Assembly (NCBI GenBank): GCA_028713595.1
Contig: JAQTNZ010000038.1
Coordinates: 1-10,431, forward strand
Direction: 5' to 3'
DNA length: 10,431 bases
DNA from: Methylovulum sp.
GTDB lineage: Bacteria > Pseudomonadota > Gammaproteobacteria > Methylococcales > Methylomonadaceae
The notes below the pieces were generated by a model. That model was not told the origin of the DNA, searched no databases, and saw only the letters and a program-made list of their open reading frames with translations. A program made the position numbers and the translations under genes. Every line of letters begins with the position of its first letter. The first letter of the stretch is position 1. Below, piece after piece: positions 2-10,431 of the stretch.

Positions 2-1100
2 GGCCGGACAGCTGAAAACTGCGGCTATCAGCGGGGCGGCGGGGTGGCGGATCGGGATTGTTTTGATCCTTTGTTTTTTAATATCGCCCCGCGTGAAGCC
101 GAACCCATGAGACCGCACCAGCGTCTGATCCTTCAGGAAAGTTGGGCGGCCTTGGAAGATGCGGGCTATAACCCGAAAAGCTTGGATGGGCAGGCGGTGA
201 GCGTGTATATCGGCGCGGAACCTAACACTTACGCCCAAGAGTCGTTCACAGGGGCATCGGATGCGATTATCGCCTCGCGTCTGGCGTATTTTTTAAATCT
301 GACAGGCGCGGCGATGGTGGTCAACACGGGCTGCTCGTCTTCCGCCGTGGCTATCCATTTGGCGGCGGTTAGCCTGCGCTCTGGTGAAGCCACTATGGCT
401 TTGGCGGGCGGGGTGTTTGCGACTTTAGACCAAGGCATGTTGATGGAGTTGGCGGACATTGACATGTTGTCACCGACAGGCCGTTGCCATACCTTTGATG
501 CCAGTGCCGATGGCACGGCTTTTTCCGAAGGCGTAGGGGTGGTGGTGTTAAAGCGTCTCAATGATGCCATTGCCGATGGCGATCCCATTTATGGTGTGCT
601 GGTCGCCTCCGGCATTAACCAAGACGGGGCTAGCAATGGTATGACCGCCCCCAACGGCCTTGCCCAACAAGCCTTGATTAGTGATGTCTATCGCCGTTAC
701 CGCATCAATCCTGAGCAGATCAGTTATGTCGAGGCGCATGGTACGGGCACTCGCCTAGGTGATCCTGTGGAGGCCAACGCTTTGGTGAAAGCGTTTGGAA
801 GCCTGACCCCCAAAAGCCATTATTGCGCCATTGGCAGCACTAAAGCCCATATTGGCCATACTTCCGCCAGTGCCGGGGTTATTGGCCTTATCAGGATTTT
901 ACTGTCTTTGCAGCATCGGCAAATTCCCGGCTTGCCGCATTTCCGGCAATTGAACCCGTTGATAGAGTTTTCTGGTTCGGCATTTTATGTCAACACCGAA
1001 ACGCTTGTATGGCATTCCCCGTCAGGCCAGCCGTTGATGGCGGCCTTAAATTCGTTTGGGCATAGCGGTACTAATGCGCATTTGGTGGTGAGCGAGTATA
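2..1100 (+). other. KS1 ketosynthase domain (N-terminus outside window)
   Basis: Thiolase-fold condensing domain. The catalytic triad is complete: Cys codon 332-334 in NTGCSSS, His 737-739 in EAHGTGT, and His 857-859 in KAHIGH with its Lys at 842-844. FDPLFFNIAPREAE near the start and NSFGHSGTNAH near the end are standard KS landmarks. Around the nucleophile the usual DTACSSSL-type motif reads NTGCSSSA, with Asn for Asp and Gly for the residue before Cys. KS2 shares this, so it looks like a clade feature rather than damage. About the first 50 residues, with the usual IAVIGM start, are outside the window. Predicted active. Confidence 0.93.
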
Positions 1101-3205
1101 TCGGTGCTGCGGCTGAAACCACAACCACACCAACTGGTGTTTACTTGATTGTGTTATCGGCAAAAAATGCCGACCGCTTACAGGCATACACGGCCAAATT
1201 GTTAAGGTTTGTGCAAGCCCCTCAGCAGGCCATTAGCCTGTCGGAATTGGCTTATACCCTGCAAACAGGCCGTGAAGCCATGCCGGAACGGCTGGCTTTT
1301 ACGGTGACATCGCTACCGGAGCTGGCAGAAAAGCTGGAAGTGTTTTTAAATCATCAGCATGAGGGTTTGTATTGCGGACAAGCCCCGCGCCATAATGGGC
1401 TGTTGGCCTTGCTGGGTGCGGATGCCGGTTTGGGCAATACGCTCGGCAATTGGTTTGCTTTAGGCCAGTATGACAAATTGCTGGAGCTTTGGGTGCAAGG
1501 CGTTGAGCTGGATTGGACGCGTTTATACGGTTCCGCCCAGCCCCGTAGGATGTCCTTGCCGACGTATCCTTTTGCGCGTGAGCACTATTGGGCCGGGTCT
1601 GCGAGTACCCCTCATACTTGTGCTGCCAAAACCAGTATGCCACCTCCAGCCGATGAGAGTTTAGCGTATTTGCTCAGGTGGCAGGTGCAACCCCCTGCTC
1701 CTTACTGCTATCCGGTTCCATTGCCGCAGACGATGGTGCTGGTTTACCCACCTTGTGCTTGGGGGTTGGAGCAAAACCTTAGTGAAGCCTTTAAGCTGCA
1801 TCATCCCGAAACTTTGGTTGTTAAGGTCTTGTTGGCGGAACAAAGCCAGCAATTATCCGCGCATGAATGGCAGTGCGCGGTGGCTGATGGGCAAAGTCTG
1901 GCGGCGTGTTTGCAAGGCTACAGCCATATTGACAGCGTTTATTTTCTGGCCACGCCCGATAATCAGGTGCTGGCCGCCGATAGCGTGGTGCAAAGCCAAC
2001 AGTATTATGAATGGTCGTTATTACGCCTGATACAGGTGTTAAAGGCCAAAATCCCTAGCCATGCCATGGTGGACTGTTATCTGGTGACGCTGGACAATTA
2101 CGCTATTTCCGGCAATGCAGTACAGCCGTTGGGGGCGGGGGTGACGGGCTTGGCTTATGCCTTGGCGCAAAGTGACCCGCGTTTTGCGGTCAGGAATCTG
2201 GACGTATCGAGTAGCGATTTGGCCGATAGCCGTAGCCGCCTAGCCTTGGTCAACAGCATTTGGCAAGAAGCCGCCTCTGGCCGTGGCGAAGTGGTCAAGC
2301 TTAATGCTGGTGGTCGCTATAAACAGCGGTTTTATTCGTGGGAATTGCCCGCTATCACCGCTTCGGCCTTCAAAACAGGTGGGGTCTATTTACTGTTAGG
2401 CGGCAGTGGTTCGGTAGGAAGGGTAATCACCCGCTATTTGCTGGAACAGTATCAGGCTAAAGTGGTTTGGTTAGGACGCACCCCTGTGGGCGATCTGGCC
2501 TTGCAACAGAAATTGGCCCAATTCAGTCGCTGGCAAGGAGCGTTAAGTTATAGCCAAGCTGATGCCAATGATTTGGCCTCCTTACAACAAGCCATCACCG
2601 GAATTAAGCAACAGTATCCGCTCATTAACGGTGCTATTTTTTCCGGTTTGGTGTTCCGCCATGAGCGGGCTTTGGCGGATACCGTTGACGCTGAATTTGG
2701 TGACATGTTGGCGGTAAAAACCGTGGGCAGCGTCAATTTTTACCAAGCTTTGCAAGGGGAAGCTTTGGATTTTATGTGTTATTTTTCATCCATCCAAGCG
2801 TTCTCTTTCCTCTCCGCCAAAGACAGTGCGGCTTATGCCGCCGGTATTGTTTTCGCCGATACTTTTGTGCAATCCTTGCAGGCCACCGCCCGTTTTCCGG
2901 TAGGTAGCATCAACTGGGGCTATTGGGCGGACACTACTGTCGGTACTGACTTAGCAAGCCGCTTAAGCAAGCATTTTGGCCTGATTGGTGACGCGGAAGG
3001 TTGCCAGTTTTTTGAGCAATTTATCCATCACTTGCGACACGGGGTGTTAAGCCAAGCTTTGTGCTTGCGTGCCAAGGCCTCGGTGCGCGATTTGATGGCA
3101 TCGGCCAAAGAGGAAACCATGACGCTGTGCAAGCAGGAAGCCCCATCGCTAATCCAGAGCTTATGTCAGGAGGGTTATGTCCACTACGACCCGGTTTCCC
3201 CATAA
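2..3205 (+). CDS. Trans-AT polyketide synthase, KS-KR (gene A, 5' end outside window)
   Basis: Large PKS protein that catalyses decarboxylative Claisen condensation (KS) and beta-keto reduction (KR) on an ACP-bound chain in the cytoplasm. The frame is open from the first full codon at 2, and the residues before the GTG at 44 already align with the equivalent part of KS2, so that GTG is internal and the true start lies upstream. The window holds 1067 codons. Order: KS1 (2 to about 1100), post-KS linker (to 1591, ending LPTYPF..EHYW), KR1 (about 1660-3080), then a tail of about 40 residues to TAA at 3203-3205. There is no AT, DH, methyltransferase or ACP in this protein. The missing cMT and ACP of the module start gene B, 102 bases downstream on the same strand, so KS1 and KR1 presumably act in trans on ACP1. 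The C-terminal tail may dock to the gene B product; that is inference. Family assignment is secure; the product is not identified. Confidence 0.95.
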   Translation, partial: GRTAENCGYQRGGGVADRDCFDPLFFNIAPREAEPMRPHQRLILQESWAALEDAGYNPKSLDGQAVSVYIGAEPNTYAQESFTGASDAIIASRLAYFLNLTGAAMVVNTGCSSSAVAIHLAAVSLRSGEATMALAGGVFATLDQGMLMELADIDMLSPTGRCHTFDASADGTAFSEGVGVVVLKRLNDAIADGDPIYGVLVASGINQDGASNGMTAPNGLAQQALISDVYRRYRINPEQISYVEAHGTGTRLGDPVEANALVKAFGSLTPKSHYCAIGSTKAHIGHTSASAGVIGLIRILLSLQHRQIPGLPHFRQLNPLIEFSGSAFYVNTETLVWHSPSGQPLMAALNSFGHSGTNAHLVVSEYIGAAAETTTTPTGVYLIVLSAKNADRLQAYTAKLLRFVQAPQQAISLSELAYTLQTGREAMPERLAFTVTSLPELAEKLEVFLNHQHEGLYCGQAPRHNGLLALLGADAGLGNTLGNWFALGQYDKLLELWVQGVELDWTRLYGSAQPRRMSLPTYPFAREHYWAGSASTPHTCAAKTSMPPPADESLAYLLRWQVQPPAPYCYPVPLPQTMVLVYPPCAWGLEQNLSEAFKLHHPETLVVKVLLAEQSQQLSAHEWQCAVADGQSLAACLQGYSHIDSVYFLATPDNQVLAADSVVQSQQYYEWSLLRLIQVLKAKIPSHAMVDCYLVTLDNYAISGNAVQPLGAGVTGLAYALAQSDPRFAVRNLDVSSSDLADSRSRLALVNSIWQEAASGRGEVVKLNAGGRYKQRFYSWELPAITASAFKTGGVYLLLGGSGSVGRVITRYLLEQYQAKVVWLGRTPVGDLALQQKLAQFSRWQGALSYSQADANDLASLQQAITGIKQQYPLINGAIFSGLVFRHERALADTVDAEFGDMLAVKTVGSVNFYQALQGEALDFMCYFSSIQAFSFLSAKDSAAYAAGIVFADTFVQSLQATARFPVGSINWGYWADTTVGTDLASRLSKHFGLIGDAEGCQFFEQFIHHLRHGVLSQALCLRAKASVRDLMASAKEETMTLCKQEAPSLIQSLCQEGYVHYDPVSP
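1101..1591 (+). other. Post-KS linker 1 (trans-AT type, no AT domain)
   Basis: About 164 residues join KS1 to the KR region. A cis-AT module would need roughly 300 more residues here, with a GHSxG nucleophile motif, and none is present. The segment contains SLSELAYTLQTGREAM and ends in LPTYPFAREHYW, matching the flanking (KS-AT plus post-AT) linkers that remain in trans-AT synthases. It is the likely surface where the free acyltransferase meets the module. The equivalent linker after KS2 (6101-6595) is similar in sequence and length. Confidence 0.75.
1660..3080 (+). other. KR1 ketoreductase domain (structural plus catalytic halves)
   Basis: NADPH-dependent reductase acting on the beta-keto group. 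The N-terminal structural half starts near LAYLLRWQVQ and includes GVTGLAYALAQSDPRF. The catalytic half starts with the nucleotide-binding loop GGSGSVG (2399-2419) and VVWLGR. Catalytic residues seen: Lys codon 2717-2719 (LAVKTVG), Ser 2789-2791 (second Ser of YFSS) and Tyr 2834-2836 (AAYAAG). The Asn of the usual YAAAN motif is Ile, and Ser and Tyr are 15 residues apart rather than the usual 13. KR2 has both features. There is no LDD motif in the loop after the AIFSGL strand, so canonical B-type stereochemistry is not indicated. Probably active. Confidence 0.9.
3168..3174 (+). promoter_or_regulatory. Strong Shine-Dalgarno-like AGGAGGG inside the 3' end of gene A
   Basis: A near-perfect anti-16S complement sits in the last codons of gene A, three bases upstream of an out-of-frame ATG at 3177 when measured from the GGAGG core. 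The spacing is shorter than the normal 5-9 bases, so it may be chance from the Gln-Glu-Gly codons. It is recorded because it precedes an unusual short frame reaching to the start of gene B. Confidence 0.25.
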
Positions 3206-3307
3206 AAAACTGGCATACTATGAAAATTTTAAAGGATAACGTTTGCGGTTTGGCAAAGGTTTCAAAGAAAGAGACTACTTTAGGGTTGGCCTTGAATGGA
3301 AAGCTAC
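3206..3307 (+). other. Spacer between genes A and B that splits module 1
   Basis: This 102-base gap is about 37% G+C by hand count, clearly AT-richer than the flanking PKS code. Genes A and B are in the same reading frame, yet that frame carries five stops across the boundary (3203, 3221, 3230, 3281 and 3293). A single sequencing error or simple readthrough therefore cannot join them. I see no convincing sigma-70 promoter and no hairpin-plus-T-run terminator, so cotranscription of A and B is the simplest reading. Confidence 0.7.
3298..3303 (+). promoter_or_regulatory. Ribosome binding site of gene B (GGAAAG)
   Basis: GGAAAG lies just upstream of ATG 3308, with GGA seven bases from the start codon. 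It favours 3308 over the other in-frame ATG at 3296, which directly follows a stop codon and has only a weak AGGG about ten bases upstream. The choice changes the protein by four residues. Confidence 0.5.
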
Positions 3308-6300
3308 ATGAACAGCATTAAATGGCGGCAAGAAGATTGGCAAAATTTCAATAACGGTTTACGCAAGCTATTGTTTGCCCAATTACGGCAAATGGGGCTG
3401 TTTGCCGAACCGGGCGTTTGGCACAACCTCACGGTATTGCGCCAGCAAGCGGGTATCCACGACAAATATGCCCGTTGGTGGGCGGAAGCTTTAAATCTTT
3501 TGGCGGATGGTGGCAACGGCCCAAGCTGGGTATTGCTAGATAAGGAATCTGTCCAAGCCACTATGGCGGCGGCTGGTTTTGACGCGGCGGCGGCTTGGCG
3601 GGAGTGGGATAGCCAAAAACCCGATTATATGGCGGATGCCGAATTGGCCACTTCGGTGCAGTTGGTCGATGCCTGTTTACAAAACCTGCCCGAAATTTTG
3701 CGCGGCAAGCTTCAGGTCACTGATATTCTGTTTCCGCGTGCGACTATGGAAAAAGTCGAAAACATGTACCAACGCCATGCGGTCGCCGATTATTTCAATG
3801 GCGTGGTCGCCGATTTGGCTTTAGCGGCTATCAGCCAGCGCGTCAAAGCCGACCCTGAAGCTAAAATACGCTTGATAGAAATTGGTGCGGGTACGGGCGG
3901 GACTACGGCAATGGTCTTGCCGGTTTTGGCAACGGTCAAAAACCATATTGAAGAATACTGTTATACCGACATTTCCAAAGCTTTTTTGTTACATGCACAA
4001 AACCGTTACGCAGTAGATTACCCTTATCTGCAAACCCAACTGTGGAACATCGAACAGCCGTTGGCGGAGCAAGGCATAGCCATAGGGAGCTATGACATTG
4101 CCATAGCCACCAATGTCCTCCACGCCACCCGTAATATCCGGCACACCTTGCGCAATGCCAAGGCGGCGTTAAAACGCAATGGCCTGTTGCTCATCAATGA
4201 AGGCATCCAAAAGACTGTGGTGGGGACGCTGACCTTCGCGCTGTTGGATGGCTGGTGGCTATATGAAGACGAAGAGTTGCGTTTGTCCGGTTCGCCGCTG
4301 TTAAGCCCGGAAACGTGGCAACGGGTGTTGCGGGAAGAAGGCTTTGCCCAAGTGCTGTTGCCCATCGAATCTGCCCGTGAATTAGGGCAGCAAATTATCG
4401 TGGCCGAAAGTGATGGTTGGATCAGGCAAACAACCGCATCGCCAACACCGTTGCAGCCTACTGTAACCCAGCCAACCGGCGATAGGCAACGGTCTGCCAC
4501 ACAAGTAACACCTGTTAGCGCCGACAACCTTAAGGATGAGGTCACGGAGATTATTTTCGCCAACCTCGCGCAGACTTTAAAAATTGCCACCAACACTTTG
4601 ACCATTGATATATCGTTTTCGGATTATGGCATTGACTCCATACTTGGTGCTGGGTTTGTCAGGCAAATCAATGATGCGCTAGGCATTACCATGAACACGG
4701 CGAGCATTTTTGACCATAGCACCGTCCAGCGTTTAGCCGACTATTTGCTGAAAACGTATCAAGGGCCGTTGGCGGAACGCTTAGGGCAAACCGCCGTTGG
4801 CTGTGAGCCTGAAGCCAGCCAAGCCGACATTCCACTCGTCCAGCCACAATCGGAACGCAGCTCCCAACATCCCTCAGCGCAAGGTAGTCCGGCAATTGCC
4901 GTGATTGGCATGTCGGGGCAGTTTCCATGCGCGAATAATGTCCATGAGTTTTGGCAAAACTTGCTTGATGGTAAATCCGGTATCGGTGAGCTGCCAGCGC
5001 ATTATCTGGATCAACCTGATGCCAATTACCGCTGGGGTGGTGCTTTGGCGGGACGGGATTGTTTTGACCCGCTGTTTTTCAATATCGCCCCGCGTGAAGC
5101 CGAGTCGATGAACCCGCACCAGCGCCTGATTTTGCAGGAAAGTTGGAAAGCTTTGGAAGATGCCTGTTATAACCCCAAAAGCCTCGCCGATACGCAAACC
5201 GGTTTGTTTATCGGTGCCGAACCCACGGGTTATTTTCATGAATCCTTTACGGGGTCTTCCGATGCGACCATCGCCTCGCGGCTGTCTTACTTTCTTAACC
5301 TGAAAGGCCCTGCACTGGTGGTCAATACCGGTTGCTCGTCATCGGGCGTGGCCTTGCATCTGGCGTGTGAAAGTTTGCGCCACCGCGAATCGGATTTGGC
5401 TTTGGCGGGCGGCGTGTATGCTGGGATGATGCAAAGCGGTTTAAGCGTACTGGCGGAAGCGGGGATTTTGTCACCTGATGGCCGTTGCCATACCTTCGAT
5501 GCCACCGCCAATGGCACGGTTTTGGCAGAAGCGGTGGGGGTGGTGGTGTTAAAGCGTTTGGACGATGCGCTGGCCGCTGGCGATTTGATTTACGGCGTGA
5601 TAGTCGGCTCCGGTATTAACCAAGATGGGGCCAGCAATGGCATGACTGCACCCAATGGGGCGGCGCAAGAAGCTTTGATTGCCGACATTTATCGGCGTTA
5701 CCGGATTAGCCCCGAACAGATCAGTTATGTCGAAGCCCACGGCACGGCGACCCGCTTAGGTGATCCGGTCGAAGCCAATGCCCTCGTCAGGGCGTTTAAA
5801 CGCTTTACCGCCCGGCAACATTACTGCGCGGTAGGTAGTGCCAAGCCTGCCATCGGGCATACCTCCGCCAGTGCCGGAGTGGTCGGGCTAATCAAAATCC
5901 TGCTGTCCTTACAGCATAAAACCCTGCCTAGTTTATTGCACTTCCAGCAATTAAATCCGCTGATTGAATTTGCCGATTCGGCGTTTTATGTCAATACCAC
6001 CACCAGTCCGTGGCAACGCCGTGATGCCCGTCAACCTTTAATGGCGGCTTTAAGTTCGTTTGGGCATAGCGGCACGAATGCGCATTTGGTGGTTGAAGAA
6101 TTTGTCCACGCATCCGCTCCCATTGCCAATAGCCCATCTGCGGTGTTAGTGCCGGTGTCGGCAAAAAACCGTGCCAGACTTAGCGACTATTTAATGCTAC
6201 TACACGCTTACCTACAATCACACCGGACAACGGTCAATTTGCCTAGCTTGGCTTATACCCTGCAAACCCGCCGCGAAGCGATGGCGGAACGGGCAGTATT

Positions 6301-9300
6301 TTTGACCAAGAATGTTGACGAATTGCTGGGTTTATTGACGGCGGCCATAGCGGGGGAGGCTTCGGACAATTATTGGCAAAGCCAAGATTACGGCAATAAA
6401 CCAAAAGGGCTATTTTTCGCCAATGATGAAGATAGCCAAGACATGTTGGCCAAATGGATGGCTAAGGGTAAGCTTAAGAAACTGGCCGAAGGCTGGGCGC
6501 AAGGGCTGAACGTAAATTGGCAGGCATTGTACGGAAACGGCCACCCCCAACCCATCCGCCTACCCACTTACCCGTTTGCCCAAGAACGCTATTGGCCGAA
6601 GGGCAAAGCCGCACCATTGGCAGAGGCTAAGATTGGCTATTTGCACCCTTTGTTGCAACAAAACACGTCCGACATTAATCGGCAACGCTACAGTTCGGCG
6701 TTTACGTCGGCGCAGTTCCCTAGCTTGCAAGGGCAAACCCTATTGCCCGCCTTGGCGTGTTTGGAAATGGCTTTGGCGGCGCTGCAACAAAGTGCGGGGT
6801 TTTTACTGGATGCGCCTACGGTGATACAGTTGCATCATCTGGAGTGGGCGGAGCCTCTGTGGCTTGACGATATCAGCCCTGTGCATATTAGCCTATTTGC
6901 TGAAGCCGAAGACATCGCTTATGAGATTTATGGCGCTGATGAAACCAGCCATCAGCAAGGCTGGGCCTGCTTAACGGCCAATGCCCCAGCCATATTGGAT
7001 TTATCGAACTTACAAGCCGACATTAAGCAATATCATCTTAATGCCGGACAATGTTATGAGGCGCTTAACGCTTTGGGCTATGTCTGCCCCCAGCATTGGC
7101 AAACCTTGGTGGCCGTGCAGGCCAATAGCCAACAGCTGTTGGCAAAGTTGGTGTTGCCCGCCGATTTGGCGGCTACCCAGCATCACTATACGGTACATCC
7201 GGCCTTATTGGAAGGGCTAATACACGCTTTAAGCCAGTTTGAGGGGTATCGTGGGCAACTCTGGTTTCCTGAACGTTTGCAGACGGTCGAGCTGTCACAA
7301 CCTTGCCCTGCTGAGGTTTGGGCATGGCTACGGCTGAATGGTGACAGCATCGACATTGATGTTTGTGACCACCAAGGCCATGTTTGTCTGCATATCACGG
7401 GCTTGCGGTTGCGGCCTTTGGCAATCGGCAAAGTCAACGAGATGCCGATGACGGCCTGGGATGGCCTGAGCTATCTGCAAACTTGGCAAGTGCAGGTCTT
7501 GCCTGAACACACCAAGCCTAAAACACCCGCCTTAGTGCTGGTGGTTGCCTATAGCGAAAATGCTTTTGCCGAATTTATTGCTGGCAGCTATCGGCAGCAA
7601 GCCGCTACCGTGCACGCTATCCTGTTAGGGTCAGACACTCGGCCATTGTCAGAAAGCGACTGGTTGTGCGGCATAGATGATAGCAAAGGTTTTGCCCGTT
7701 GTTTGCAGGATGCCCCAACGCCCGATTGTGTGTATTTTTGTGTCAGTGACGGGTCTGGCGAGTTTTTGCAAGCGGTGGAAGCAAGCCAACACTATCATGA
7801 GCTTCAACTGTTACGTCTGCTTAAGGCTTTGAAGCATAAGCTAGCCAGTACGGCTTTTGTCGATTGTTATGTGTTGTCAGTGGACAATTACCGTCTTTAT
7901 GACACGGCAATCCAAGCTGGTGGTTGTGGCTTGACCGGATTGGCTTATGCTTTGGCGCAAAGTGACCACCGTTTTTTGCTGAGAAACGTGGATTTGGCGA
8001 GTGAAGACTTGCACGACAGGCAAGTTTATCCGCATTTGTTCAGGCAGATTGTCAGCGAACCGGCTGCTGATAGGGGTGATGTGGTCAAACTGTGCGGTGG
8101 GCAACGTTATAAACAGGCTTTTTATAAATTAAATACCGATAGCGCGGCGGTTCCGGTACTCAAACAACGTGGTGTTTATGTGATCTTGGGCGGTAGCGGC
8201 ACGGTGGGCAGAGTTATCACCCGTCAATTGCTAGCAGATTATCAAGCCCACGTGGTTTGGCTGGCTCGGACAGTCGCAACTGATCCGGTGGTTCAGGCCA
8301 AGCTCGCCGAATTTGGCGCGGCGGTGACTTATATCCAAGCCGATGTCACGCAATGGACAACCCTGCAATACGCTTTTGCCATCATCAAACAACGGTTTTC
8401 CTGCATCAACGGGGCGATTTTTTCAGGTTTGGACATTAGCCAAGAGCAAGGCTTGGCGCAAGTCAGCGAAGCGGCGTTTTTGGATATTGTTAAGGTAAAA
8501 ACTTTAGGTAGCCTGTATTTTTATAGGCTGTGGCAAGACGAAGCGTTGGATTTCTTATGTTATTTTTCCTCAGGCCAAGCCTACCCGTTTTCAGGGGCCG
8601 CCAAACTGCCCGCTTATGCGACCGGCATTACCTTTGCCGATAGCCTGGTACATGGCTTGCGACAATCCGCCCGTTTTCCGGTCGGCATCATCAACTGGGG
8701 ATTTTGGCAAGCGTCTTTTGCTGATGTTTCTGGTAGCACTCCGCAAAATGTCAGTTTTTTGAGCGATCAAGAAGGCTTTGCCTGTTTTAAGGCGTTTTTG
8801 GGGCATTTGCCAAATGGCCCGTTGCGGCAAGTGTTATGTATGCGGGCTTCGGAACCCGTACAGCAATTGATGGCGGTCAAGGCCGAAATTGTAGGTTTAG
8901 CTCAGGCAGGCACACCGATAAGCTTTACATCGGCACACTATGCCAATCTTGTCGGTTTGCCGTTGACCAATCCGCATTGGCCAACGCTGTTGGCCTGTTT
9001 GCAAAGCTTGCTGTTTGCCCAATGCCGACAATTGGGGTTGTTTACTGATATGGGCTGGCAACAGCGGACACACTTGCGCCAACAAGCAGGCATTCTGGAC
9101 AAGTACGCCCGTTGGTGGGAAGAAGCCTTAAACCTATTGGCTGACGACAGTTATGGCACACGCTTTGTACATATAGACAATGATGCCGTGCAAGTCGATG
9201 TCGGACAAGTAGGGTTTGACGCACAAGCCGTTTGGCAACGTTGGGCGGAACAAAAGGCCCTATATTTGGCCGATGCCGAGTTGGCCTCATCGGTGCATTT

Positions 9301-10431
9301 GGCTGATGCCTGTTTGCAAAATTTGCCGGACATTTTACGCGGCAAGCTTCAGGCCACTGAGATACTGTTTCCCAGCGCAAGCATGGCTAATGTTGAAAAT
9401 ATATACCAACGCCATGCCGTTGCCGATTATTTTAATGGCGTGATCGCCGACATGGTGTTGCTGGCGATAACACAAATCCTCAATGCCAATCCGAGCGCCA
9501 AAATCCGTCTGATAGAAATTGGCGCGGGTACGGGTGGGACTACGGCAATCGTTTTGCCAGCGTTGGCAACGGTCAAAAACCATATTGAAGAATACCGCTA
9601 CACCGACATTTCCAAGGCCTTTTTGTTACATGCGCAAAACCGTTATGCAGTAGATTACCCTTATTTGCAAACCCAACTGTGGAACATCGAACAGCCTTTG
9701 GCGGAGCAGGGCATAGCTATAGGCAGTTACGACATCGCTATCGCTACCAACGTCCTCCATGCCACCTGCAATATCCGGCACACTCTAGGTAACGCCAAGT
9801 TGGCATTAAAAACCAATGGTTTGCTGATCATCAACGAAGGCATCCAAAAATCGCTGTTGAATACCCTGACGTTTGGCTTGCTCGATGGTTGGTGGTTATA
9901 TGAAGATGCCAGCTTGCGCCTGCCCGGCTCACCATTGTTGGGTGTGGAGCAGTGGCGGCAAGTGTTAGGGATGGAAGGTTTTGGTAAGCTGTTTTGGCCC
10001 GCCCAAGCGGCGGCGGTTGCCGGATTGCAGGTGATAGTCGCGGCCAGCGACGGTTTGCTCAAGCAAGCTGTCGCTCGGCAAACTGCCAAGCCATTGCCAT
10101 TGCAAGACATTAAACCAACCACCGCAACGGCTAGTAAAAAATACCTTGCCAATGTTGTACCGACATCCGGCGGCAACCTTAAGCAACAAGTCGGTGGCAT
10201 TATCGCCGAAGCCTTGGCAATATCATTAAGCGTAGCCAAAAATGAGCTTGATTATGATGTACCCTTCTCAGATTACGGCATAGACTACATTTTGGGCGTG
10301 GGTTCTGTCAGCGAGGTGAGCAAGAGTCTAGGTGTAACTATGAACACCGCGATCATTTTTGATTATACGACGGTGAACTTGCTGACGGCTTACTTATTGG
10401 ATACTTATCGGAAAGGTTTGACCGCTCGTTT
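3308..10431 (+). CDS. Trans-AT polyketide synthase, cMT-ACP-KS-DH-KR-cMT-ACP (gene B, 3' end outside window)
   Basis: Giant PKS protein of at least 2374 residues, open to the window end with no stop in frame. Residues are counted from ATG 3308 (ATG 3296 is possible). Order: cMT1 (about 15-375), ACP1 (407-486), KS2 (527-931), post-KS linker (to 1096), DH2 (about 1110-1373), KR2 (about 1389-1848), cMT2 (about 1895-2253), ACP2 (2290 onward). The first two domains complete the module begun by KS1-KR1 of gene A; the rest is a second module. There is no AT domain, so loading is in trans. Module 2 parallels module 1 domain by domain, with the DH added, which points to module duplication. Two domains of module 2 have lost catalytic residues: DH2 (His to Pro, Asp to Glu) and ACP2 (attachment Ser to Tyr). 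An upstream-type start in mid-module is unusual but occurs in trans-AT systems, where modules are often split between proteins. The polyketide is not identified. Confidence 0.95.
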   Translation, partial: MNSIKWRQEDWQNFNNGLRKLLFAQLRQMGLFAEPGVWHNLTVLRQQAGIHDKYARWWAEALNLLADGGNGPSWVLLDKESVQATMAAAGFDAAAAWREWDSQKPDYMADAELATSVQLVDACLQNLPEILRGKLQVTDILFPRATMEKVENMYQRHAVADYFNGVVADLALAAISQRVKADPEAKIRLIEIGAGTGGTTAMVLPVLATVKNHIEEYCYTDISKAFLLHAQNRYAVDYPYLQTQLWNIEQPLAEQGIAIGSYDIAIATNVLHATRNIRHTLRNAKAALKRNGLLLINEGIQKTVVGTLTFALLDGWWLYEDEELRLSGSPLLSPETWQRVLREEGFAQVLLPIESARELGQQIIVAESDGWIRQTTASPTPLQPTVTQPTGDRQRSATQVTPVSADNLKDEVTEIIFANLAQTLKIATNTLTIDISFSDYGIDSILGAGFVRQINDALGITMNTASIFDHSTVQRLADYLLKTYQGPLAERLGQTAVGCEPEASQADIPLVQPQSERSSQHPSAQGSPAIAVIGMSGQFPCANNVHEFWQNLLDGKSGIGELPAHYLDQPDANYRWGGALAGRDCFDPLFFNIAPREAESMNPHQRLILQESWKALEDACYNPKSLADTQTGLFIGAEPTGYFHESFTGSSDATIASRLSYFLNLKGPALVVNTGCSSSGVALHLACESLRHRESDLALAGGVYAGMMQSGLSVLAEAGILSPDGRCHTFDATANGTVLAEAVGVVVLKRLDDALAAGDLIYGVIVGSGINQDGASNGMTAPNGAAQEALIADIYRRYRISPEQISYVEAHGTATRLGDPVEANALVRAFKRFTARQHYCAVGSAKPAIGHTSASAGVVGLIKILLSLQHKTLPSLLHFQQLNPLIEFADSAFYVNTTTSPWQRRDARQPLMAALSSFGHSGTNAHLVVEEFVHASAPIANSPSAVLVPVSAKNRARLSDYLMLLHAYLQSHRTTVNLPSLAYTLQTRREAMAERAVFLTKNVDELLGLLTAAIAGEASDNYWQSQDYGNKPKGLFFANDEDSQDMLAKWMAKGKLKKLAEGWAQGLNVNWQALYGNGHPQPIRLPTYPFAQERYWPKGKAAPLAEAKIGYLHPLLQQNTSDINRQRYSSAFTSAQFPSLQGQTLLPALACLEMALAALQQSAGFLLDAPTVIQLHHLEWAEPLWLDDISPVHISLFAEAEDIAYEIYGADETSHQQGWACLTANAPAILDLSNLQADIKQYHLNAGQCYEALNALGYVCPQHWQTLVAVQANSQQLLAKLVLPADLAATQHHYTVHPALLEGLIHALSQFEGYRGQLWFPERLQTVELSQPCPAEVWAWLRLNGDSIDIDVCDHQGHVCLHITGLRLRPLAIGKVNEMPMTAWDGLSYLQTWQVQVLPEHTKPKTPALVLVVAYSENAFAEFIAGSYRQQAATVHAILLGSDTRPLSESDWLCGIDDSKGFARCLQDAPTPDCVYFCVSDGSGEFLQAVEASQHYHELQLLRLLKALKHKLASTAFVDCYVLSVDNYRLYDTAIQAGGCGLTGLAYALAQSDHRFLLRNVDLASEDLHDRQVYPHLFRQIVSEPAADRGDVVKLCGGQRYKQAFYKLNTDSAAVPVLKQRGVYVILGGSGTVGRVITRQLLADYQAHVVWLARTVATDPVVQAKLAEFGAAVTYIQADVTQWTTLQYAFAIIKQRFSCINGAIFSGLDISQEQGLAQVSEAAFLDIVKVKTLGSLYFYRLWQDEALDFLCYFSSGQAYPFSGAAKLPAYATGITFADSLVHGLRQSARFPVGIINWGFWQASFADVSGSTPQNVSFLSDQEGFACFKAFLGHLPNGPLRQVLCMRASEPVQQLMAVKAEIVGLAQAGTPISFTSAHYANLVGLPLTNPHWPTLLACLQSLLFAQCRQLGLFTDMGWQQRTHLRQQAGILDKYARWWEEALNLLADDSYGTRFVHIDNDAVQVDVGQVGFDAQAVWQRWAEQKALYLADAELASSVHLADACLQNLPDILRGKLQATEILFPSASMANVENIYQRHAVADYFNGVIADMVLLAITQILNANPSAKIRLIEIGAGTGGTTAIVLPALATVKNHIEEYRYTDISKAFLLHAQNRYAVDYPYLQTQLWNIEQPLAEQGIAIGSYDIAIATNVLHATCNIRHTLGNAKLALKTNGLLIINEGIQKSLLNTLTFGLLDGWWLYEDASLRLPGSPLLGVEQWRQVLGMEGFGKLFWPAQAAAVAGLQVIVAASDGLLKQAVARQTAKPLPLQDIKPTTATASKKYLANVVPTSGGNLKQQVGGIIAEALAISLSVAKNELDYDVPFSDYGIDYILGVGSVSEVSKSLGVTMNTAIIFDYTTVNLLTAYLLDTYRKGLTAR
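3350..4430 (+). other. cMT1, SAM-dependent C-methyltransferase domain
   Basis: Transfers a methyl group from S-adenosylmethionine to the alpha carbon of the beta-ketoacyl-ACP. An N-terminal helical lid (LLFAQLRQMGLF, HDKYARWW) precedes the Rossmann core. SAM motif I is LIEIGAGTGGTT at 3872-3907 (residues 189-200), followed by EYCYTDIS. The His of NVLHAT (codon 4121-4123, residue 272) and the Glu of LLLINE (4199-4201, residue 298) match the His-Glu pair known from PKS C-methyltransferases. LLDGWWLYED and a SGSPLLSPETW segment close the domain, as is usual for the family. Predicted active, acting on the chain carried by ACP1. Confidence 0.9.
3872..4144 (+). repeat. Methyltransferase core, copy 1 of a diverged direct repeat
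   Basis: This stretch, from the SAM motif to just past NVLHAT, aligns without gaps to 9509-9781. By hand I count roughly 30 base differences over about 270 bases, most of them silent, and only about four amino-acid changes in about 90 residues. The surrounding lid and C-terminal parts of the two methyltransferases differ much more. Confidence 0.8.
4526..4765 (+). other. ACP1 acyl carrier protein domain (intact)
   Basis: Four-helix carrier domain that holds the growing chain on a phosphopantetheine arm. The attachment serine is codon 4637-4639 (residue 444) in DYGIDSILG, the normal G(I/V)DS context. Helix III follows in the usual place (TMNTASIFDHSTVQRLADYLL). A flexible linker rich in Pro, Thr and Gln separates it from cMT1 (about 4430-4520), and another of about 40 residues leads to KS2. 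It serves the split module whose KS and KR are on gene A and should also deliver the chain to KS2. Confidence 0.93.
4886..6100 (+). other. KS2 ketosynthase domain
   Basis: Complete condensing domain starting at SPAIAVIGMSGQFP. Catalytic residues are all present: Cys codon 5333-5335 (residue 676, NTGCSSSG), His 5738-5740 (residue 811, EAHGTAT) and His 5858-5860 (residue 851, KPAIGH). It shares with KS1 the unusual NTGC surroundings of the nucleophile and long identical stretches such as FDPLFFNIAPREAE. It would accept the chain from ACP1. Whether it condenses depends on a working partner ACP, and ACP2 of its own module lacks the attachment serine. Confidence 0.94.
6101..6595 (+). other. Post-KS linker 2 (trans-AT type, no AT domain)
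   Basis: About 165 residues, including SLAYTLQTRREAM, and ending in LPTYPFAQERYW. It parallels the linker after KS1 and lacks any acyltransferase motif. It supports loading of both modules by one free AT encoded elsewhere. Confidence 0.72.
6635..7425 (+). other. DH2, degenerate dehydratase-like domain
   Basis: Double-hotdog region between the post-KS linker and KR2. It begins with the family's HPLL motif (His codon 6644-6646). The first catalytic motif, normally HxxxGxxxxP, aligns as PSLQGQTLLP: Gly (6731) and the last Pro (6746) are kept but the catalytic His is Pro (codon CCT 6719-6721, residue 1138), one base from the His codon CAT. LEMALAAL follows as in real DHs. In the second motif, normally HPSLLDG...Q/H, the sequence reads HPALLEGLIH, so the catalytic Asp is Glu (7211-7213, residue 1302). 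The fold is clear but dehydration is very unlikely. It may be structural or vestigial. Module 1 has no counterpart. Confidence 0.8.
7470..8850 (+). other. KR2 ketoreductase domain
   Basis: Two-part KR. The structural half starts near LSYLQTWQVQ and includes LTGLAYALAQSD. The catalytic half begins with GGSGTVG (8189-8209, from residue 1628) and VVWLAR. Lys 8498-8500 (residue 1731, VKVKTLG), Ser 8570-8572 (1755, second Ser of YFSS) and Tyr 8615-8617 (1770, PAYATG) are in place. As in KR1, the Asn of the usual YAAAN motif is Ile and the Ser-Tyr spacing is 15 residues. There is no LDD motif. The reductive residues are intact even though the neighbouring DH and ACP are not. Confidence 0.9.
8990..10065 (+). 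other. cMT2, SAM-dependent C-methyltransferase domain
   Basis: Paralogue of cMT1, here fused to KR2 rather than starting a protein. The lid includes LLFAQCRQLGLF and LDKYARWW. SAM motif I, LIEIGAGTGGTT, is at 9509-9544 (from residue 2068). The His-Glu pair is His 9758-9760 (residue 2151, NVLHAT) and Glu 9836-9838 (residue 2177, LLIINE), again 26 residues apart. LLDGWWLYED and LPGSPLLG follow. It looks catalytically sound although its own ACP cannot carry substrate in the usual way. Confidence 0.9.
9509..9781 (+). repeat. Methyltransferase core, copy 2 of a diverged direct repeat
   Basis: Partner of 3872-4144, about 5.6 kb away in the same orientation and reading frame. See that entry for the comparison. 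Confidence 0.8.
10175..10431 (+). other. ACP2 carrier-like domain without the phosphopantetheine serine
   Basis: Aligns with ACP1 along its length (NLKQQV..., FSDYGID, TMNTAIIFDYTTV, AYLLDTY), so the fold is evident. In the GIDS motif the attachment Ser is replaced by Tyr: the codon is TAC at 10286-10288 (residue 2327), where ACP1 has TCC, a possible one-base change. A nearby Ser five residues on (LGVGS) is not at the attachment point. A 4'-phosphopantetheinyl transferase should not modify this domain, so it cannot hold a chain by the normal thioester arm. A second, functional ACP could follow immediately after the window edge. Confidence 0.87.

What the first reader, a model, noticed from the sequence alone, without database searches (positions are those of the whole stretch)
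10262..10300. ACP2 has Tyr in place of the phosphopantetheine-attachment serine
Directly read: FSDYGIDYILG, with TAC at 10286-10288, against FSDYGIDSILG with TCC in ACP1. The rest of the carrier fold is well kept. Carrier domains need this Ser for 4'-phosphopantetheinylation, so module 2 as seen cannot tether an intermediate. Inference: module 2 is skipped, uses a tandem ACP beyond the window, is served by a carrier in trans, or this domain is a docking scaffold.
Basis: partly seen in the sequence, partly recalled or inferred. Interest (0 to 1): 0.75.

Follow-up and report, generated by a model that had tools for sequence, protein, structure and literature searches.

The report
Polyketide carrier domain missing attachment serine
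Near the end of a contig, probably from a methane-oxidising bacterium, one carrier domain of a polyketide assembly line reads tyrosine where the essential attachment serine should be; it is otherwise an ordinary carrier, so this is most likely a recent local loss or a base-call error rather than a new kind of domain.

Summary
In detail: codon 10286-10288 is TAC (Tyr), while ACP1 has TCC at 4637-4639.

ACP2 is an authentic trans-AT PKS carrier (PF00550 34.9 bits, cut-off 20.8; helical carrier model, pLDDT 89.5). Ser-less carriers are not rare in related synthases: 33 of 447 in the proteins examined, 31 of them with a Ser-bearing ACP later in the same module. As first carrier after a methyltransferase, only 1 of 210 others lacks Ser. 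Unlike 15 of 18 Ser-less carriers compared, ACP2 has a normal profile score (55th percentile); its 11 nearest distinct relatives carry Ser and show no following ACP. One further oddity, Ser at +6, occurs in 0 of 399 Ser carriers.

Best reading: a recent, isolated loss leaving an unmodifiable domain, tolerated if a second carrier serves the module (0.4). A sequencing error or strain variant (0.27) and a decaying or skipped module (0.20) remain open. Interest is low to moderate.

The parts
2..3205 (+). PKS protein 1 (5' end cut by the contig): KS1 (about 23-1129, N-terminus missing), KR1 (about 2372-2926); the module continues in the next gene with MT1-ACP1
3296..10429 (+). PKS protein 2, 2378 aa, open to the contig end: MT1-ACP1-KS2-DH2-KR2-MT2-ACP2, no AT domain found (trans-AT type)
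4541..4762 (+). ACP1, with Ser codon TCC at 4637-4639
4892..6136 (+). KS2; active-site Cys and both His kept; 70% identical to the KS that follows MT-ACP in G011:C73
6614..7450 (+). DH2, probably inactive: 4-column gap and Pro (6719-6721) at the catalytic His column, Glu for Asp and His for Gln in the second motif
8162..8710 (+). KR2, conserved Lys, Ser and Tyr columns kept
9389..10003 (+). MT2 (C-methyltransferase), 0 deviations at 33 highly conserved columns
10196..10411 (+). ACP2, carrier domain without the attachment Ser
10286..10288 (+). TAC (Tyr) in the phosphopantetheine-Ser column
10304..10306 (+). TCT (Ser) at position +6, a hydrophobic core position; Ser there in 0 of 399 Ser-bearing carriers
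10412..10431 (.). contig end: 6 residues after the matched ACP2 domain, no continuation found in the MAG

Best explanation
ACP2 is an ordinary C-methyltransferase-associated carrier domain of a trans-AT polyketide synthase that has recently, and as far as seen only here, lost its phosphopantetheine serine (Ser to Tyr). Shown: the codon, the predicted carrier fold, the kept KS, KR and MT motifs around it, and Ser in its nearest relatives. Inferred: the domain stays apo and inert, and the module can run only through another Ser-bearing carrier, most simply a tandem ACP just beyond the contig end.
For: Codon confirmed in a 7.1-kb open frame. Carrier by Pfam, AlphaFold and Foldseek. KS2, KR2 and MT2 keep their catalytic columns, so the module is not simply rubble. 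Ser-less carriers recur in related synthases (33 of 447), and 31 of those 33 have a Ser-bearing ACP later in the same module. Tandem ACPs after MT exist in the family (24 of 209), including P0151, the 12th nearest distinct relative of ACP2. The second unusual residue in the same helix, Ser at +6 (0 of 399), would not come from the same single-base error.
Against: The 11 nearest distinct relatives of ACP2 show no following ACP, and the domain-collinear relative G015:C44 has a Ser ACP and then a KS without room for a second ACP. None of the 24 post-MT tandems seen has a Ser-less first copy. ACP2 shows no general decay: percentile 0.55 with the Ser column masked and end branch 0.45 against a median of 0.52, which fits a base error as well. 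A polar residue at some core position is found in 20 of 265 Ser-bearing carriers, so the +6 Ser is only suggestive.
Confidence: 0.4

Rival explanations
1. Base-call, assembly or minority-strain artefact: the real or majority codon is Ser and the module is ordinary.
For: One base separates TAC from TCC; the site lies about 145 bp from the end of a contig of a 587-contig, 76.6% complete MAG. The rest of the domain looks functional. Only 1 of 210 other post-MT first ACPs lacks Ser, and that one (P0138) sits in a fragment whose following KS turns, by my reading of it, to apparent nonsense. No second assembly of this protein was seen: P0001 stands for one sequence on one contig.
Against: No break in the 7.1-kb frame. 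No excess of odd residues at highly conserved columns of KS, KR, MT and DH: 8 of 217 on this contig, 30 of 716 on seven other PKS contigs of the MAG, and about 5.1 expected from reference proteins (P = 0.14). A second unusual residue at +6. The two MT-ACP copies share at most 33 identical bases in a row, so a repeat chimera is unlikely.
Confidence: 0.27
2. Module 2 is decaying or skipped: DH2 and ACP2 are dead, the chain passes from ACP1 directly onward, or the line no longer makes its product.
For: DH2 has lost its catalytic His and has changed Asp and Gln columns. The tail of MT2 departs from a conserved motif.
Against: Conserved-column deviations on this contig are no higher than on the MAG's other PKS contigs taken together (8 of 217 against 30 of 716, P = 0.85); an excess over three hand-picked contigs (2 of 414, P = 0.004) disappeared when all were counted. 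KS2, KR2 and MT2 motifs are kept and the frame is open. The DH2 changes alone fit a module that leaves a beta-hydroxyl. ACP2 has no long branch.
Confidence: 0.2
3. A free-standing or neighbouring-module carrier serves module 2 in trans.
For: Trans-AT systems use several trans-acting parts (established knowledge, recalled).
Against: None of the evidence gathered points to it. The 24 PF00550 matches of the MAG were not examined for a dedicated free-standing carrier.
Confidence: 0.05
4. ACP2 is a kept apo-domain with a structural or recognition role (a Ser-less carrier under selection).
For: Ser-less carrier folds recur in certain places in these synthases: after KS, before MT, and as first of a tandem. 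ACP2 keeps a normal profile score.
Against: 15 of 18 non-redundant Ser-less carriers score at or below the 7.2th percentile, unlike ACP2. ACP2's nearest Ser-bearing row is at tree distance 0.85, whereas the other Ser-less carriers for which one was listed, P0138 apart (0.63), are at 1.05 or more. No relative with a kept non-Ser residue at this place was found.
Confidence: 0.05

Closest known systems
Carrier domain of trans-AT PKS modules ending in MT-ACP (P0121, P0020, contig C161 of the same MAG)
   Same: Same order MT-ACP, 56-58% identical, same FSDYGID-ILGVG...MNTAIIFDY signature
   Different: All three carry Ser at the attachment site and Phe at +6
Natural Ser-less ACP at the start of a tandem (KR-ACP[Q]-ACP, nine labelled Brevibacillus and one Bacillus; KR-ACP[A]-ACP in Paenibacillus)
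   Same: Carrier fold without the attachment Ser
   Different: Followed by a Ser-bearing ACP and placed after KR, not after MT; residue Gln or Ala
Internal Ser-less carriers after KS or between KR/DH and MT (for example C63 residues 2080-2149, P0020, P0041, P0075)
   Same: Carrier-like fold without Ser; C63, in the same MAG, also has Tyr
   Different: Mid-module position, far from Ser-bearing carriers in the tree, low profile scores where scored (C63 was not scored there)
P0138, MT-ACP[L]-KS fragment
   Same: The only other post-MT first ACP without Ser in the sample; normal profile score (0.59)
   Different: Leu; the KS after it turns, by my reading, to apparent nonsense

Membership tests
PF00550 carrier domain (ACP) | Sequence match over the curated cut-off | tested here: met
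   34.9 bits against 20.8
PF00550 carrier domain (ACP) | Helical-bundle carrier fold | tested here: met
   Prediction only: AlphaFold2 pLDDT 89.5, helices 8-24, 37-40, 44-58, 66-69, 73-90; best Foldseek hits are carriers, e.g. 4hkg, VirA ACP5b, CurA ACP
Functional acyl carrier domain | Ser at the start of helix II for 4'-phosphopantetheine | tested here: not met
   Tyr, TAC at 10286-10288
Functional acyl carrier domain | Phosphopantetheine arm present on the protein | not testable with these tools
   Needs intact-mass spectrometry
Trans-AT PKS | No AT domain inside the modules | tested here: met
   Pfam scan at E <= 0.001 lists no acyltransferase domain; PF22336 (RhiE-like linker) in both proteins
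Trans-AT PKS | Free-standing AT in the gene cluster | not tested
   The long + strand ORFs of the contig are PKS genes; the rest of the cluster was not searched for an AT
Recurrent Ser-less carrier (mid-module or tandem) | Groups with those domains, low carrier score | tested here: not met
   Nearest rows are Ser-bearing post-MT carriers, end branch 0.45 against median 0.52; percentile 0.55. The tree has 73 columns and no well-supported set holds ACP2
Tandem ACP with a dead first copy | Ser-bearing ACP immediately downstream | not testable with these tools
   The contig ends; no continuation found

The most novel reading that the evidence does not exclude
ACP2 is a genuine, selected apo-carrier at the terminal position of a methylating module: a carrier fold kept for protein contacts (KS/KR/MT docking or handing the chain to another carrier) while the covalent arm is supplied elsewhere, a use of the fold with no convincing parallel at this position among the relatives examined.
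Probability: 0.05. Interest if true: 0.5.

Novelty: new member of a known kind. Interest (0 to 1): 0.25.

Why it matters
If the base is real, it is a clean natural case of a single-residue carrier knock-out in a module whose KS, KR and MT look intact, useful for asking how assembly lines survive carrier loss (backup tandem carrier, skipping or decay). For genome mining it is a caution: a module counted from its domains may be unable to hold a chain, and a Ser-less carrier call near a MAG contig end should be checked in the reads first. The survey also shows that Ser-less carrier folds are fairly common in trans-AT synthases (33 of 447 in this sample).

Tried and rejected
Tried and led nowhere: (a) finding the contig's continuation. 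A search for the last 22 bases with up to 2 mismatches gave only the contig itself. Contig C63 begins inside an ACP and was considered as the next piece, but its first KS is closest to a G011:C73 KS (62.6%) that follows KR-ACP in another module, so the join is not supported. (b) A second reading of the same gene: none among the listed hits of two protein searches, the 20 genus genomes or 237 family genomes, both including the window's own, or the genome-contig scan, whose 72 loci I read only as a table of titles and identities. (c) Repeat-driven misassembly: the longest identical stretch between the two MT-ACP copies is 33 bp. (d) Plasmid records: 263 records, all below 60% identity. (f) Literature: the searches listed no paper recognisable as describing a natural Ser-to-Tyr ACP. 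I saw passages of PMC10921412, PMC4552970 and PMC8739492 and otherwise listings and abstract starts. This is not a claim that nothing is in print.

Considered and rejected: phosphopantetheine on Tyr or on the nearby Ser at +6 (recalled: no PPTase known to me does this; nothing here supports it, about 0.01). Dedicated docking scaffold as the main reading.

Limits: the carrier counts rest on the 120 best listed hits of each of two searches (of 886 and 193 hits) with home-built HMMs. P0030 in that set is contig C161 of the same MAG; in the list of nearest relatives P0030 and C161 are one domain and were counted once. 10 of the 11 Gln cases are close relatives. Five post-MT ACPs cut by protein ends and 54 MT domains without a following ACP were set aside. 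For the profile and core tests, domains with under 66 aligned residues were dropped. The tree used domains thinned at 85% (Ser-less) and 55% (Ser) identity, plus up to 7 relatives named by hand.
Full report
What is there. The window is one complete contig (C38) of a fragmented metagenome-assembled genome, 3.26 Mb in 587 contigs, 76.6% complete. Its genus-mate G015 has two contigs of the same lengths as contigs named Methylocucumis oryzae (13,943 bp; 47,155 bp), so the host is most likely a methane-oxidising gammaproteobacterium (inference). The contig carries two PKS proteins on the + strand: KS1-KR1 (2-3205), then, after about 90 bp with several stops in that frame, MT1-ACP1-KS2-DH2-KR2-MT2-ACP2 (3296-10429). 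The Pfam scan lists no AT domain and finds RhiE-like linkers in both proteins, so this is trans-AT PKS machinery.

The observation. TAC lies at 10286-10288 and TCC at the matching place in ACP1 (4637-4639). In an HMM alignment the Tyr falls in the Ser column; in the AlphaFold model (pLDDT 89.5, 22 aligned sequences) it is the first residue of helix 44-58. The best Foldseek matches are carrier proteins, and PF00550 matches at 34.9 bits against a cut-off of 20.8. So the domain is a carrier that lacks its attachment residue.

How unusual. In the 119 homologues of the first search Ser-less ACPs were already visible. In all 240 listed proteins of two searches, 33 of 447 carriers lack Ser, counting only domains with a letter in the column and leaving the window's two out. 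In 31 of these 33 a Ser-bearing ACP follows before the next KS; one runs off its protein (P0011) and one has none (P0138). They sit mainly after KS, between KR or DH and MT, and as first of a tandem. As first carrier after an MT domain, 209 of 210 have Ser, the exception being P0138 with Leu. Among the sequences examined, Tyr was otherwise seen only in contig C63 of the same MAG, in a mid-module carrier whose nearest counterparts have Asn and Thr.

What ACP2 resembles. With the Ser column masked, ACP2 scores at the 55th percentile of 265 non-redundant Ser-bearing carriers; 15 of 18 non-redundant Ser-less carriers score at or below 0.072, the exceptions being two Brevibacillus tandem copies (about 0.32) and P0138 (0.59). 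In a tree of 208 carriers its nearest rows are Ser-bearing post-MT carriers and its end branch is ordinary (0.45, median 0.52), though with 73 columns most forks are weak and no well-supported set holds it. Its 11 nearest distinct relatives all have Ser and show no following ACP in the stretch visible; the 12th, P0151, is the first of a tandem. One core position is unusual: +6 is Ser, seen in 0 of 399 Ser-bearing carriers. Since 20 of 265 Ser-bearing carriers have at least one polar core residue somewhere, this is suggestive, not proof, of relaxed selection.

The rest of module 2. KS2, KR2 and MT2 keep their catalytic residues. DH2 does not: a 4-column gap and Pro at the catalytic His column (His in 108 of 125 reference rows), Glu for Asp (Glu in 12 rows) and His for Gln (His in 2) in the second motif. 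At highly conserved columns of KS, KR, MT and DH, C38 departs in 8 of 217 cases. Against contigs C63, C161 and C374 (2 of 414) that looked high (P = 0.004), but against all seven other PKS contigs of the MAG that were fetched (30 of 716) it does not (P = 0.85), nor against reference proteins (about 5.1 expected, P = 0.14). So there is no sign of general decay, nor of many base errors, on this contig.

Is there a tandem ACP? Unknown. The contig ends 6 residues after the matched domain and its last 22 bases are unique in the MAG. Tandems after MT occur in 24 of 209 cases, none with a Ser-less first copy. Against a tandem here, the domain-collinear relative G015:C44 has a Ser-bearing ACP followed about 40 residues later by a KS in another frame, and P0018 has ACP and then KS. 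Orthology is loose: the first C44 KS is not among the nine best matches listed for KS2.

Weighing. A real loss is favoured over an error because Ser-less carriers occur regularly in the family as a whole, the frame is clean, and a second odd residue is present. An error stays plausible because the position is near a MAG contig end, the domain otherwise looks functional, and post-MT carriers almost never lack Ser. If real, survival of the module requires another carrier, and the simplest is a tandem ACP just outside the window; if none exists, the module is skipped or dying. The odds given are my judgement, not computed.

Literature. PMC10921412 (passages) changes the conserved Ser of the second ACP of gladiolin PKS module 6 to Ala so that only a single phosphopantetheine can be borne, which illustrates the need for this Ser. 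PMC6916388 (search listing and abstract start only) reports that chain length and scaffold of a polyketide depend on the function of a single domain. No described natural Ser-to-Tyr carrier was recognised in the searches listed in Tried and rejected.

Verdict. It is a Ser-less member of a known domain family, not a new kind of system.

Noticed in passing
L011 (contig C63), minus-strand protein residues 2080-2149: A second carrier-like domain with Tyr for Ser (YGLDYGQ) in the same MAG, about 45 residues after a KS. Counterparts have Asn (P0020) or Thr (G011:C131), and KS-[Ser-less carrier]-DH orders occur elsewhere with His, Pro or Ala. This recurrent Ser-less carrier fold after KS may be a real functional element and deserves its own study.
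   Followed up: partly
window 6614-7450: DH2 lacks the catalytic His (4-column gap, Pro at the His column) and has Glu and His in the Asp/Gln motif, so it is probably inactive.
   Followed up: yes
window 3203-3296: Module 1 is split between two genes, KS-KR and MT-ACP, with about 90 bp and several in-frame stops between them.
   Followed up: partly
homologues P0005, P0009, P0011, P0012, P0014, P0025, P0027, P0129: A Ser-less carrier fold lies just before the C-methyltransferase (after KR or DH where seen) in eight related proteins.
   Followed up: partly
contigs C63 and C161 of G000 (L011, L009): C63 ends in and C161 begins in a KS of the same type (70% and 71% to the same G011:C131 KS), so the two contigs are probably neighbours in one assembly line.
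   Followed up: no
window 3749-4363 and 9389-10003: MT1 and MT2 are much more alike (84-91% DNA identity over three successive 30-codon blocks in their middle) than the ACP stretches (48-60%), suggesting exchange between the two modules.
   Followed up: partly
contigs C278 and C30 of G000 (L072, L067): One KS on each departs at 13 and 12 of 57 highly conserved columns, far more than the others, so these may be unusual or inactive KS domains.
   Followed up: no
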